Source: Romanomermis culicivorax
Lineage: Eukaryota > Nematoda > Enoplea > Mermithida > Mermithidae
Length of the DNA stretch: 64,000 bases
Direction: 5' to 3'
Assembly (NCBI GenBank): GCA_963922205.1
Contig: CAWUHX010000012.1
Coordinates: forward strand, 620,001-684,000
The translations under genes and the position numbers were made by a program. The notes beneath the pieces are model-generated. The model was not told the DNA's origin, made no database searches, and saw only the letters and a list, made by a program, of their open reading frames with translations. This document shows, one piece after another, positions 15,695-29,640 of this stretch (the first letter of the stretch is position 1; every line of letters begins with the position of its first letter).

Positions 15695-16295
15695 TGTTGA
15701 AATGAGACTTGGGGTTAGATTGAGAAATATAGATAAAGGATTTGATACCAAAAATAGACCTAATCAGTCACTAGCTAATTCACCTAATCAGGCCGAAACC
15801 TTAGGTAGAATCAGATTGCAACAGTTCGGTCAGTCTCTAAATCAACAAAGATCTCCTGCTTTCGTCCCGAAGAACTGCAGAAGAAATGATAACACCCTGA
15901 GCTCAAGTAACTTCAAACCGGGGGCAAAATCAGAAGTCAGGCCGAGAACTGAGTTGTAAATGTAGACTTGCACGCTGGGTGGCTCTCCAGAAATCCGGGG
16001 TCTAACCTGCGTTCCCTCCGCTGCGAGTAATCCAAAGGCGATCGGCCGGGGGTCGCTGTATTTTAGGCGGACGTGCTCCACCACAAATAAAATAACAAAT
16101 AATATAAATTTATGCCCTACTGGGCCGCCGATATTTCTCTTTCAATAAAAAACAAACAATAATCACTGAATGACCAAAAACATAGACGACCGGCATATTT
16201 ATGCACGGTGTCTATGCAAATCGGCGTCGACGCAAAACGCGTCGACTTCGGCTATTTCTTCACAACTTTGAGATAGACTATGTCCATCCCTGACA
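15695..16295 (-). repeat. 3' LTR of element 3
   Basis: About 601 bp, same ends as the 5' LTR, with the same hairpin at 16226-16246. The bases just inside it (minus strand AGGCTCGAGGGA, 16307-16296) are partly purine-rich and are the best candidate polypurine tract. Confidence 0.88.
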
Positions 16296-16415
16296 TCCCT
16301 CGAGCCTCGAAACTGACCAACGGGAGGTTAAAAAGATTCATATTACGCCGCAATGACAATTTTGGAACCTTTTCAGGCCCTAATACAGTCAAGGCAGTTT
16401 TCTGAACCTTTTTGG

Positions 16416-16766
16416 TCATTCATGCCCCCTTGCGGAAAGCTTTCCGAATGACCACCCTCTTACGTCAAGTCTTTTACCAGGCATAACGGAATGTCCACAA
16501 GGCCGTCCGGGTGCGCTACCTCTTGGTCTGGACGCCGACGGATCGACGACTCCGCGTCGGCTTGACTTTGTTGGCGTACCGCCGAAATCCAATTTGACCT
16601 GCACCAGGGCCGAGGGTCTTCGGTTGCCGTCCATCCCGTGACCTTTCGTTTCGTGCTTTACACTGGACGCCAGGGACAGAACATTTGTCTGTCTATCTCT
16701 TTCTGGTTGTGTGTTTCGCCGTGAAGCCTCCGCCTTTTTTCCAACGTTGCCCTCGCCAAAAAACAT
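16416..16766 (-). CDS. Small basic ORF near the 3' LTR, doubtful
   Basis: 116 codons, Arg/Gly/Ser-rich, same strand as the other element 3 genes. It has no recognisable domain. The DNA here is more GC-rich than its surroundings, which alone could keep the frame open. Confidence 0.25.
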   Translation of the reverse strand: MFFGEGNVGKKAEASRRNTQPERDRQTNVLSLASSVKHETKGHGMDGNRRPSALVQVKLDFGGTPTKSSRRGVVDPSASRPRGSAPGRPCGHSVMPGKRLDVRGWSFGKLSARGHE

Positions 16767-17134
16767 TTTCTAAAATATCTAAATAATTTACAAAATATAT
16801 ACATTAGTACGCATATCACAAAAAAAAAAAAATCAAAATCTCCCGGGCGTATCGATTTGAGCAAAAAAAAAAAAGAAAAATAAGGCGAGATTTAAATGAG
16901 ATTAAGTGAAAAAATAAATTTTTTGTACATGCCCGTTTTGGCGATGCGAGGTATGAAAACAAATAAAAAATTTAAAGCACGCAACAAATAAGAAAGATTT
17001 TTTTTTTGTATTTTGTATTTTATATTTTTTTTTGTATTTTTTGTGGTTTTGTATATTTTTTTTTTGTATTTTGTGTTTTTTGTGAAAAATAAATGCGAAA
17101 ATGATATTTTTTGGCCAAAAATTATGCGGCTGAT
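16767..17134 (-). other. Untranslated part of element 3, homopolymer-rich
   Basis: Long T and A runs (for example around 16820-16880 and 16995-17090) and no supported gene. Confidence 0.5.
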
Positions 17135-18440
17135 TTACTGTTGCGGCCCGCCGCCTCCTTGCTCCCCTCTCTGGGCTCCTCCACGACCTCCGTAAGGTCT
17201 CCATACCCACTGGCCCTGCTGGCCTCCTCTGCCTTGCACCTGAGGCGCGGCACCCCTGCCACGCACCGCTCCACGACCACCCCGGTTGGGGTTGTGGAAC
17301 TGGAACTGGCCTCGGCCTCGGTTACCAGTCTTTTGCACCTTTCCTTGCGTACTCGGGGCTACTTCCTGGCTTCCTTGGCCTTGACCCTGACCTTGAGGTC
17401 CGGGAACCTTCAAAGTAGCGCCAGTTTTTCTGTCTTGAGCTTTACTGAACTTAACAGAGCTTTGTCTGAACTGAACTGGCACTTCTTTTGGCTCCCATCA
17501 CTCCGACCTGGTGATTGCTACTAAGCATCACAGATCGAAAGGCCATTTTATATTCCAAGGGGGTATCGTGGTTATTATACACCCTCAACAGTCGGTTATT
17601 CGCCGCCACCATCGCCCTGGCATAAATGTTTCCAATATGCATCGGGGATAGCGGGGCGCATTCCAACACGAGGAATAGCATCATAACCAAATACCTTACC
17701 GAGGAAAAAGCATCAGGTGCTCTCTCCGACTTGAGCCACCTGGGGAGAAAGTCATACATGACCCTCTCCCAGAGTTCTTCAGGTAAATTAGTCCGATCAT
17801 AGAGAAACGCTCCCTGGACTCTGAACTGTTGTTCATAGTCCCGGTAGATTTCCCTAACGGCGTCATTTACCATGAAGAAGACTCTTTCTGACTCAAATTG
17901 CTCGAAAGCAAAATATTTGGCCACTGCACTCGTAAAAAATGAGATTGGGCCAGCTTCTCTGGCTTTTGGTTGGTAGACATCCCAGAAGTCCAAGAGACTG
18001 TCCTTGAATTTTTCCGCAGTCACTTCCGGCGTTTCAGTTACCTGAGCAGCCTGTGCCTGCTTAATTTTACTGGGACCAGCCACTTGCACTTGACTAGCTG
18101 CCACTCCTGGTTTTTGGTCCTTGCTGGGTTTTGCCTGGCCTTTCGGCATCGGTTTCCCCATCGCAAGGCCTATTGCGCCTGAAGCTTGACTAGTTTTGGA
18201 TGTGCTATCCAGAGTTGCAGTGACCACTGAAGATGTGGCCAATGACGGTGTTCCAGTTGAGGTAGAAGTAATTTGAGAAGTGGGGGTAGTAGTGGAGGTA
18301 ATCGTAGAAGTTGAGGTCGATATGACCGTCGAAGATGCCGTCTTACTTTCTTCCTCTTTCGCTTCTACTTTTGCTCCCTTAATACCCTTCTTCCTCTTTT
18401 CCTTCTCCTTTACTCTCATTTTCTTTTTCCTTTCAGCCAT
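17135..18440 (-). CDS. Accessory ORF 2: lysine-rich to RGG-rich, likely nucleic-acid binding, one frameshift
   Basis: The first ORF (18440-17451) starts with a very basic segment (MAERKKKMRVKEKEKRKKG), then a Ser/Thr-rich linker, then a helical-looking globular region (about residues 140-310) that I do not recognise. Around 17475-17485 the reading frame must move by +1 to enter a second open frame (17482-17135) made of Gly, Gln and Arg repeats (GQGQGQG, NRGGRGAVRGRG). RGG-type tails bind RNA in many proteins. Whether the shift is a mutation or programmed is open; the local sequence is GCCAAAAGAAG. Together the two parts would give about 435 residues. Position after the exonuclease ORF suggests both come from the same subgenomic or spliced transcript (inference). 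Confidence 0.7.
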
Positions 18441-28942: not shown

Positions 28943-29020
28943 TTTGTAACCTCCCAGTTCTCTATAAAAACCAATAGGTTTTTTGACTCCTCGAGTTTGC
29001 CTCTGATTTTCCGTTACTTT

Positions 29021-29038
29021 GAGAGTCAGAAGCCACCA
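29021..29038 (-). promoter_or_regulatory. Primer-binding site, element 3
   Basis: Minus strand TGGTGGCTTCTGACTCTC, two bases after the LTR end. It would pair with a tRNA ending in GAGAGTCAGAAGCCACCA; the tRNA is not identified. Confidence 0.65.
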
Positions 29039-29040
29039 CT

Positions 29041-29640
29041 TGTTGAAATGAGACTTGAGTTAAGGTTGAGAAATATAAATAAAGATTTGATACCAAAAAT
29101 GGACCTAATCAGTCACTAGCTAATTCACCTAATCAGGCCGAAACCTTAGGTAGAATCAGATTGCAACAGTTCGGTCAGTCTCTAAATCAACAAAGATCTC
29201 CTGCTTTCGTCCCGAAGAACTGCAGAAGAAATGATAACACCCTGAGCTCAAGTAACTTCAAACCAGGGGCAAAATCAGAAGTCAGGCCGAGAACTGAGTT
29301 GTAAATGTAGACTTGCACGCTGGGTGGCTCTCCAGAAGTCCGGGGTCTAACCTGCGTTCCCTCCGCTGCGAGTAATCCAAAGGCGATCGGCCGAGGGTCG
29401 TTGTATTTTAGGCGGAAGTGCTCCACCACAAATAAAATAACAAAATAATATAATATTATGCCCTACTGGGCCGCCGATATCTTCTTTCAATAAAAAACAA
29501 ACAATAATCACTGAATGACCAAAAACATAGACGACCGGCATATTTATGCACGGTGTCTATGCAAATCGGCGTCGACGCAAAACGCGTCGACTTCGGCTAT
29601 TTCTTCACAACTTGGAGATAGACTATGTCCATCCCTGACA
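29041..29640 (-). repeat. 5' LTR of element 3
   Basis: On the minus strand it starts TGTCAGGGATGG and ends CATTTCAACA. It includes a hairpin GTCGACGC-AAAAC-GCGTCGAC at 29571-29591. It matches the 3' LTR almost throughout. Confidence 0.88.

What the first reader, a model, noticed from the sequence alone, without database searches (positions are those of the whole stretch)
15695..29640. LTR retrotransposon that carries its own 3'-5' exonuclease
Between pol and the 3' LTR, on the coding strand of an otherwise standard gypsy-type element, lies a 912-codon ORF whose N-terminus has all DEDDy exonuclease residues (Asp53, Glu55, Asp125, Tyr230, Asp234). That slot usually holds env or nothing. Intact gag-pol plus an intact exonuclease despite visibly diverged LTRs suggests the ORF was kept by selection until insertion. 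Possible roles, all inferred: proofreading or trimming of cDNA ends, removal of primer tRNA or host RNA, or blocking small-RNA silencing by degrading guide RNAs.
Basis: partly seen in the sequence, partly recalled or inferred. Interest (0 to 1): 0.9.

Follow-up and report, generated by a model that had tools for sequence, protein, structure and literature searches.

The report
Nematode LTR retrotransposon with exonuclease-like gene
A jumping element, apparently from a mermithid roundworm, carries an extra gene that looks like an enzyme trimming nucleic acids from their 3' ends, and a related copy suggests that selection kept the gene; rotifer elements with a similar extra gene are already in print.

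Summary
The observation largely holds. Pfam finds the 3'-5' exonuclease family only weakly (E=0.004, below cut-off), an RNase D profile comparison found nothing, and both AlphaFold runs failed, so the fold is unproven. The ORF is not a one-off capture: Romanomermis culicivorax gene models and an ENA contig encode relatives, some joined to pol or to the next ORF. Between this copy and the ENA copy, changes in the exonuclease region are far more conservative than neutral drift (0 of 500 simulations); three R. culicivorax fragments look neutral. Corrections: the LTRs are little diverged; the 3' gene was probably longer (exonuclease, ORF4, RGG tail), here cut by an in-frame stop and a frame change; no target-site duplication was seen. 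DEDDy ORFs in this slot are published for bdelloid rotifer LTR elements (Rodriguez 2017), so this is a new variant of a known kind. Best guess: a spliced mRNA makes an RNA-binding 3'-5' exonuclease acting on RNA ends.

The parts
29040..29652 (-). 5' LTR (613 bp)
   Evidence: 97.1% identical to 15694-16307 by blastn; 15 substitutions in 612 aligned columns
22403..29059 (-). gag-pol, one open frame of 2218 aa; first ATG at 28942; protease, RT, RNase H, H2C2 and integrase core in Ty3/gypsy order
21868..21973 (-). possible short leader exon of the 3' gene: ATG at 21973, open to a GTAAGC donor near 21868, phase-compatible with the acceptor near 21231 (inferred, no RNA evidence)
   Evidence: the join was not built
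21230..21237 (-). possible 3' splice site TTTTTTAG just before the exonuclease ORF; the R. culicivorax gene model P0003 matches the window from 21230 on
18471..21329 (-). exonuclease-like ORF, 952 aa stop-to-stop, 912 aa from the ATG at 21209; DEDDy residues at 21051-21053 (D53), 21045-21047 (E55), 20835-20837 (D125), 20520-20522 (Y230), 20508-20510 (D234)
17451..18470 (-). ORF4, 339 aa stop-to-stop (329 from ATG at 18440), same frame as the exonuclease ORF after one stop codon; charged N-terminus, then a segment conserved in P0007
17135..17467 (-). RGG-rich tail in another frame than ORF4; its start is continuous with the ORF4 body in the relative P0007
15694..16307 (-). 3' LTR

Best explanation
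This is a Ty3/gypsy-type LTR retrotransposon of a mermithid nematode (Romanomermis culicivorax or a near relative, inferred from the relatives found) whose lineage carries a third gene between pol and the 3' LTR. The gene encodes a DEDDy-type 3'-5' exonuclease-like domain followed by a long uncharacterised part and, in the ancestral form, probably ORF4 and an RGG-rich RNA-binding tail. Shown: order of the genes, catalytic residues, relatives with the same order, conservative substitution pattern against one relative, in-frame stop and frame change in this copy. Inferred: the protein is made from a spliced subgenomic mRNA (GTAAGC donor near 21868, TTTTTTAG acceptor near 21231) and trims or degrades RNA 3' ends during the element's life cycle, with the RGG tail holding the substrate. 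The RNA substrate is my preference because RNase D-like and EXD-like members act mostly on RNA (recalled, and PMC5408684 passages) and because of the RGG tail; a DNA substrate is not excluded.
For: Motif residues in place. Relatives: P0003 holds two pol pieces and then the exonuclease N-terminus; P0005 holds exonuclease, ORF4 and tail pieces in that order; P0008 holds the exonuclease C-terminus and ORF4. P0004 (exonuclease) and P0007 (ORF4) both come from an ENA contig of 10055 bases, taken to be the same contig from the equal length. Residues where a relative covers them in frame: D53 and E55 kept in 1 of 1, D125 in 2 of 2, Y230 and D234 in 1 of 1. Selection: window against P0004, 125 positions, 28 substitutions, mean BLOSUM62 0.96 against about -0.5 +- 0.3 for neutral drift, 0 of 500 simulations at each of four ts/tv values; ORF4 against P0007, 1 to 4 of 500.
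Against: The Pfam score is below the curated cut-off (17.4 against 23.6), and unrelated families reach similar E-values on low-complexity proteins in the same scans (DUF5685 0.0014; Med3 0.0057). No exonuclease among solved structures or NCBIfam. hhalign against 81 enterobacterial RNase D proteins gave probability 0.8% and did not align the catalytic residues. Both AlphaFold models are meaningless (mean pLDDT 38 and 35). The substitution pattern of P0003, P0005 and P0006 is that of neutral drift. The ENA copy is itself frame-shifted before Exo III. No RNA data; activity and substrate untested.
Confidence: 0.7

Rival explanations
1. Catalytically idle, RNA-binding DEDD domain: the fold was taken over as a nucleic-acid-binding platform, as reported for Maelstrom and EXD1, and serves RNA packaging or export.
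For: RGG-rich tail downstream; Rodriguez 2017 notes inactive DEDD derivatives in the piRNA pathway (passage); the Pfam match is weak.
Against: All five DEDDy residues are present in the window and kept wherever a relative covers them in frame; idle family members usually lose some (recalled).
Confidence: 0.15
2. Counter-defence: the exonuclease degrades host small guide RNAs (or their precursors) and so shields the element from silencing.
For: Extra enzymes in this slot are dispensable for basic retrotransposition in most gypsy elements (general knowledge), so a host-directed role is plausible; an RNA-silencing link was raised for rotifer elements.
Against: R. culicivorax has no PIWI and no 5'-triphosphate secondary small RNAs were detected there (PMC4323106 passages), so piRNA and 22G targets are unlikely; only Dicer-type siRNAs or microRNAs remain. 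No direct evidence.
Confidence: 0.1
3. Proofreading or trimming of cDNA 3' ends before integration, in cis with reverse transcriptase and integrase.
For: DEDDy enzymes also act on single-stranded DNA (PMC5408684 passage).
Against: The ORF is not part of the gag-pol frame: it starts more than 1 kb after the pol stop and in another frame, so it would not be made in equal amount or packaged with RT by default. No DNA-specific feature seen.
Confidence: 0.1
4. Neutral passenger: a captured gene piece carried along without a role.
For: Fragments P0003, P0005 and P0006 drift neutrally; this copy's 3' gene is interrupted; Rodriguez 2017 found no departure from neutrality in the env- and GDSL-type ORF3 clones that they sequenced (section 3.6).
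Against: Substitutions between the window copy and the ENA copy are strongly conservative in the exonuclease (0 of 500) and in ORF4 (1 to 4 of 500); a 952-aa frame has stayed open.
Confidence: 0.1
5. The DEDDy motif is a chance match and the ORF encodes an unrelated protein, for example a divergent structural or env-like protein.
For: Sub-threshold Pfam score, no profile-profile support, no structure.
Against: The only Pfam family reported for the 290-codon piece is the one the motifs predicted, and the matched stretch contains Exo II and Exo III.
Confidence: 0.12

Closest known systems
Bdelloid rotifer LTR retrotransposons Juno1/2 and Vesta2/5 with DEDDy ORF3 (Rodriguez, Kenefick and Arkhipova 2017, PMC5408684)
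   Same: An RNase D-like DEDDy ORF in the third-gene slot after pol, in elements with protease, RT, RNase H and integrase; ORF3 said to be a separate transcriptional unit expressed from spliced messages (passages).
   Different: Here gag and pol are one frame and no dUTPase profile was found, while all Juno, Vesta and TelKA families have a dUTPase (section 3.1); the nematode 3' gene is followed by ORF4 and an RGG tail; the host is apparently a mermithid nematode. Sequence relatedness of the exonucleases was not tested.
Terminons (giant Athena Penelope-like elements of bdelloid rotifers) with DEDDy 3'-exonucleases (PMC6431247, passages)
   Same: A retroelement carrying a DEDDy exonuclease as an accessory gene.
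   Different: Not LTR elements; different RT class.
Cellular DEDDy exonucleases: RNase D, WRN, EXD2, MUT-7 (Pfam PF01612)
   Same: Exo I DxE, Exo II D and Exo III YxxxD in order.
   Different: Score below the family cut-off; long spacing between Exo II and Exo III (105 residues from D125 to Y230); long unrelated C-terminal part.
Orchid Ty3/gypsy elements with an m6A demethylase domain (PMC9289625, search listing and start of abstract only)
   Same: A gypsy element with a captured RNA-acting enzyme.
   Different: Different enzyme and host kingdom.

Membership tests
Ty3/gypsy LTR retrotransposon | Two LTRs flanking gag-pol on one strand | tested here: met
Ty3/gypsy LTR retrotransposon | Protease - RT - RNase H - integrase order | tested here: met
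   residues 888-979, 1267-1426, 1519-1620, 1835-2004
Ty3/gypsy LTR retrotransposon | RT phylogeny | not tested
   no tree was built
Ty3/gypsy LTR retrotransposon | Target-site duplication | tested here: not met
   flanks differ; the left flank is another element's gag and the right flank a hAT C-terminus. This concerns the history of this copy or of the assembly, not the class of the element
Ty3/gypsy LTR retrotransposon | tRNA primer-binding site after the 5' LTR | tested here: inconclusive
   a TGG-starting stretch follows the 5' LTR but does not match the one tRNA of the window (tRNA-Thr); other tRNAs were not available
DEDDy 3'-5' exonuclease (PF01612) | Exo I DxE, Exo II D, Exo III YxxxD | tested here: met
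   kept in the relatives that cover them in frame
DEDDy 3'-5' exonuclease (PF01612) | Profile score above the curated cut-off | tested here: not met
   17.4 bits against 23.6, E=0.0041; hence filed only as exonuclease-like
DEDDy 3'-5' exonuclease (PF01612) | RNase H-like DEDD fold | tested here: inconclusive
   two AlphaFold jobs with mean pLDDT 38.1 and 35.3; no fold search was run on them
DEDDy 3'-5' exonuclease (PF01612) | Profile-profile match to RNase D | tested here: not met
   probability 0.8% against 81 enterobacterial RNase D proteins, a narrow set
DEDDy 3'-5' exonuclease (PF01612) | Exonuclease activity | not testable with these tools
   needs a bench assay
Bdelloid Juno/Vesta elements with DEDDy ORF3 | Extra DEDDy ORF after pol | tested here: met
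   (subject to the exonuclease identity)
Bdelloid Juno/Vesta elements with DEDDy ORF3 | dUTPase between protease and RT | tested here: not met
   no dUTPase among the 12 Pfam families matched by gag-pol; so it works like, but is not filed as, a Juno/Vesta element
Bdelloid Juno/Vesta elements with DEDDy ORF3 | Exonuclease homologous to theirs | not tested

The most novel reading that the evidence does not exclude
A nematode retrotransposon lineage independently armed itself with a large RNA-processing protein (3'-5' exonuclease, linker, helical part, RGG tail; roughly 1,400 codons in its ancestral form) that selection maintains, and uses it against RNA of the host, for instance Dicer-dependent small RNAs in a worm that has lost piRNAs: a transposon-borne enzymatic silencing suppressor.
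Probability: 0.1. Interest if true: 0.85.

Novelty: new variant of a known kind. Interest (0 to 1): 0.5.

Why it matters
If the enzyme is real, DEDDy exonucleases have entered the third-gene slot of LTR elements in nematodes as well as rotifers, which suggests a recurrent need of such elements and not a rotifer oddity. The rotifer study left open whether such ORFs bring the element an advantage; the conservative substitution pattern found here is a first sign of selection and can be turned into a full dN/dS test on the long-read R. culicivorax assembly. A repeat-rich host without piRNAs is a good place to ask whether transposons carry enzymes against host RNA.

Tried and rejected
One-off capture from the host: rejected, because relatives with the same order exist. 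At least three loci besides the window are involved: P0005 and P0006 differ where they overlap, and the ENA copy differs from both; P0003 and P0008 may or may not be further loci.

Strongly diverged LTRs: rejected.

Structure: alignment A2 (4 rows) and a single-sequence run, both meaningless. I therefore ran no fold search.

Solved structures, NCBIfam, profile comparison with RNase D (81 proteins, all enterobacterial, the best 80 of 202 loci plus E. coli K-12): no support. IMG/VR with the exonuclease ORF, P0007 and part of pol and GTDB contigs with P0004: no relatives.

Primer-binding site from the window's tRNA-Thr: no match.

Whole-genome copy count, dN/dS and presence or absence of the ORF per copy: not done; the genome search gave no answer in 14 tries.

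Limits of the neutrality test: it uses protein letters of the relatives, takes the window's codons as the start, and has no DNA of the relatives; results at ts/tv 1, 2, 4 and 8 agree for P0004. P0008 gave 23 of 500 (one ts/tv value) and the pol linker piece of P0003 17 to 64 of 500, both between the two classes.
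Full report
What is there. The element lies on the minus strand from 29652 to 15694. Its LTRs (29040-29652 and 15694-16307) differ by 15 substitutions in 612 aligned columns, K2P 0.025, so they are not strongly diverged. Gag and pol form one open frame of 2218 aa with protease, RT, RNase H and integrase profiles in Ty3/gypsy order. About 1.07 kb after the pol stop, in another frame, comes an ORF of 952 aa stop-to-stop, 912 aa from the ATG at 21209. It is followed in the same frame, after one stop codon, by ORF4 (339 aa), and then, in another frame, by an RGG-rich stretch.

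Exonuclease identity. The first 290 codons match Pfam PF01612 (3'-5' exonuclease) with E=0.0041 and 17.4 bits, over a stretch holding Exo II and Exo III; the curated cut-off is 23.6 bits. The whole ORF gave E=0.035. PF01612 was reported for 1 of 6 proteins, 1 of 9 (the same sequence, trimmed) and 0 of 3 at its own limit of 0.1. Unrelated families reach similar E-values on other, low-complexity proteins of these scans (DUF5685 0.0014; Med3 0.0057), so the match alone is not proof; it gains weight because the family was named beforehand from the motifs. Against it: no exonuclease among solved structures, none in NCBIfam, no hhalign match to 81 enterobacterial RNase D proteins, and two failed structure predictions (mean pLDDT 38.1 and 35.3). 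I call it exonuclease-like and put the identity at roughly 0.85.

Other copies. The protein search with the whole ORF found one protein (P0003), the one with the 290-codon piece three (P0004, P0005, P0006), and the one with ORF4 two (P0007, P0008). P0003, P0005, P0006 and P0008 are UniRef gene models of Romanomermis culicivorax; P0004 and P0007 are on an ENA contig of 10055 bases, probably the same contig. Mapped on the window, P0003 gives two pol pieces and then the exonuclease N-terminus; P0005 gives exonuclease, ORF4 and tail in that order; P0008 gives the end of the exonuclease ORF and ORF4. The order pol - exonuclease - ORF4 - tail is therefore a family trait. I infer that the window is from R. 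culicivorax or a near relative; no call names its source.

State of the 3' gene. In P0008 the codon at the place of the window's stop between exonuclease ORF and ORF4 is a sense codon, and in P0007 the ORF4 body runs into the tail without a frame change. The window copy thus probably has an interrupted 3' gene that was once continuous. The ENA copy is interrupted elsewhere: the last part of P0004 matches the window's exonuclease region in another frame. Gene models with predicted introns are not transcripts, so this stays an inference.

Selection. Under a simple test, the substitutions between the window and a relative are scored with BLOSUM62 and compared with 500 simulated neutral paths from the window's codons, stops excluded. 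Exonuclease against P0004: 125 positions, 28 substitutions, mean 0.96 against -0.54 to -0.37 for ts/tv 1 to 8; 0 of 500 each time. ORF4 against P0007: 196 positions, 47 substitutions, 1 to 4 of 500. Exonuclease against P0005, P0006 and P0003: 128 to 326 of 500, that is, neutral. Of two pol pieces of P0003 one is neutral (202 to 262 of 500) and one intermediate (17 to 64 of 500). P0008 against ORF4 gave 23 of 500. The reading is purifying selection while the element moves and drift once a copy is dead. The test has no DNA of the relatives and is not a dN/dS.

Expression. A GTAAGC donor near 21868 ends a short open stretch from an ATG at 21973, and a TTTTTTAG acceptor lies just before 21230; the phases fit the exonuclease frame, and P0003 begins its exonuclease part at exactly 21230. 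This suggests a spliced subgenomic mRNA; it is a prediction.

Function. My best guess is an RNA-binding 3'-5' exonuclease that trims or degrades RNA ends in the element's life cycle. Proofreading in cis is less likely, since the ORF is outside gag-pol. Counter-silencing is possible but narrowed: R. culicivorax lacks PIWI, and no 5'-triphosphate small RNAs were detected in it (PMC4323106, passages).

Prior work. Rodriguez et al. 2017 (PMC5408684; abstract, passages and sections 3.1 and 3.6) report DEDDy ORF3s in bdelloid Juno and Vesta LTR elements, acquired at least twice, and in Athena elements. They propose 3'-end processing and say that catalytic activity is yet to be shown. PMC6338049 (first part of the text) lists the DnaQ-like exonuclease among known accessory domains; PMC6431247 (passages) repeats it for Terminons. 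In seven answered searches no listed title or abstract start described such an ORF in a nematode element; the library holds open-licence papers only. Passages of the R. culicivorax assembly paper (PMC10879605) say that 68.2% repeats were identified; they do not mention this gene. Passages of the Mermis nigrescens paper (PMC10989877) do not either.

Surroundings. No target-site duplication: the left flank is the gag of another element on the plus strand, cut at the 3' LTR, and the right flank is a hAT C-terminus (PF05699, E=8.7e-05). The copy has been rearranged, or the assembly joins two places. The interest is moderate because the kind is known; the weight lies in the new host group, the larger 3' gene and the sign of selection.

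Noticed in passing
10445-13066 (+): An 873-aa ORF joins a class III viral fusion glycoprotein (PF24664 Monjiviricetes_fusion, E=5.8e-16) in frame to a retroviral-type aspartyl protease (PF13650, E=1.5e-06). A glycoprotein in front of the protease is an unusual order.
   Followed up: partly
13521-15694 (+): Gag region of a second, related element (weak Retrotrans_gag match), cut exactly where the 3' LTR of the studied element ends.
   Followed up: partly
29653-29871 (+): C-terminus of a hAT transposase (PF05699) directly at the outer end of the 5' LTR; with the gag on the other side this means no simple insertion site.
   Followed up: partly
8304-9059: Tandem repeat giving long repetitive frames on both strands.
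   Followed up: no
R. culicivorax protein P0003 (UniRef A0A915K0E6): A gene model named myosin heavy chain begins with pieces of this element, probably a false fusion in the annotation.
   Followed up: partly
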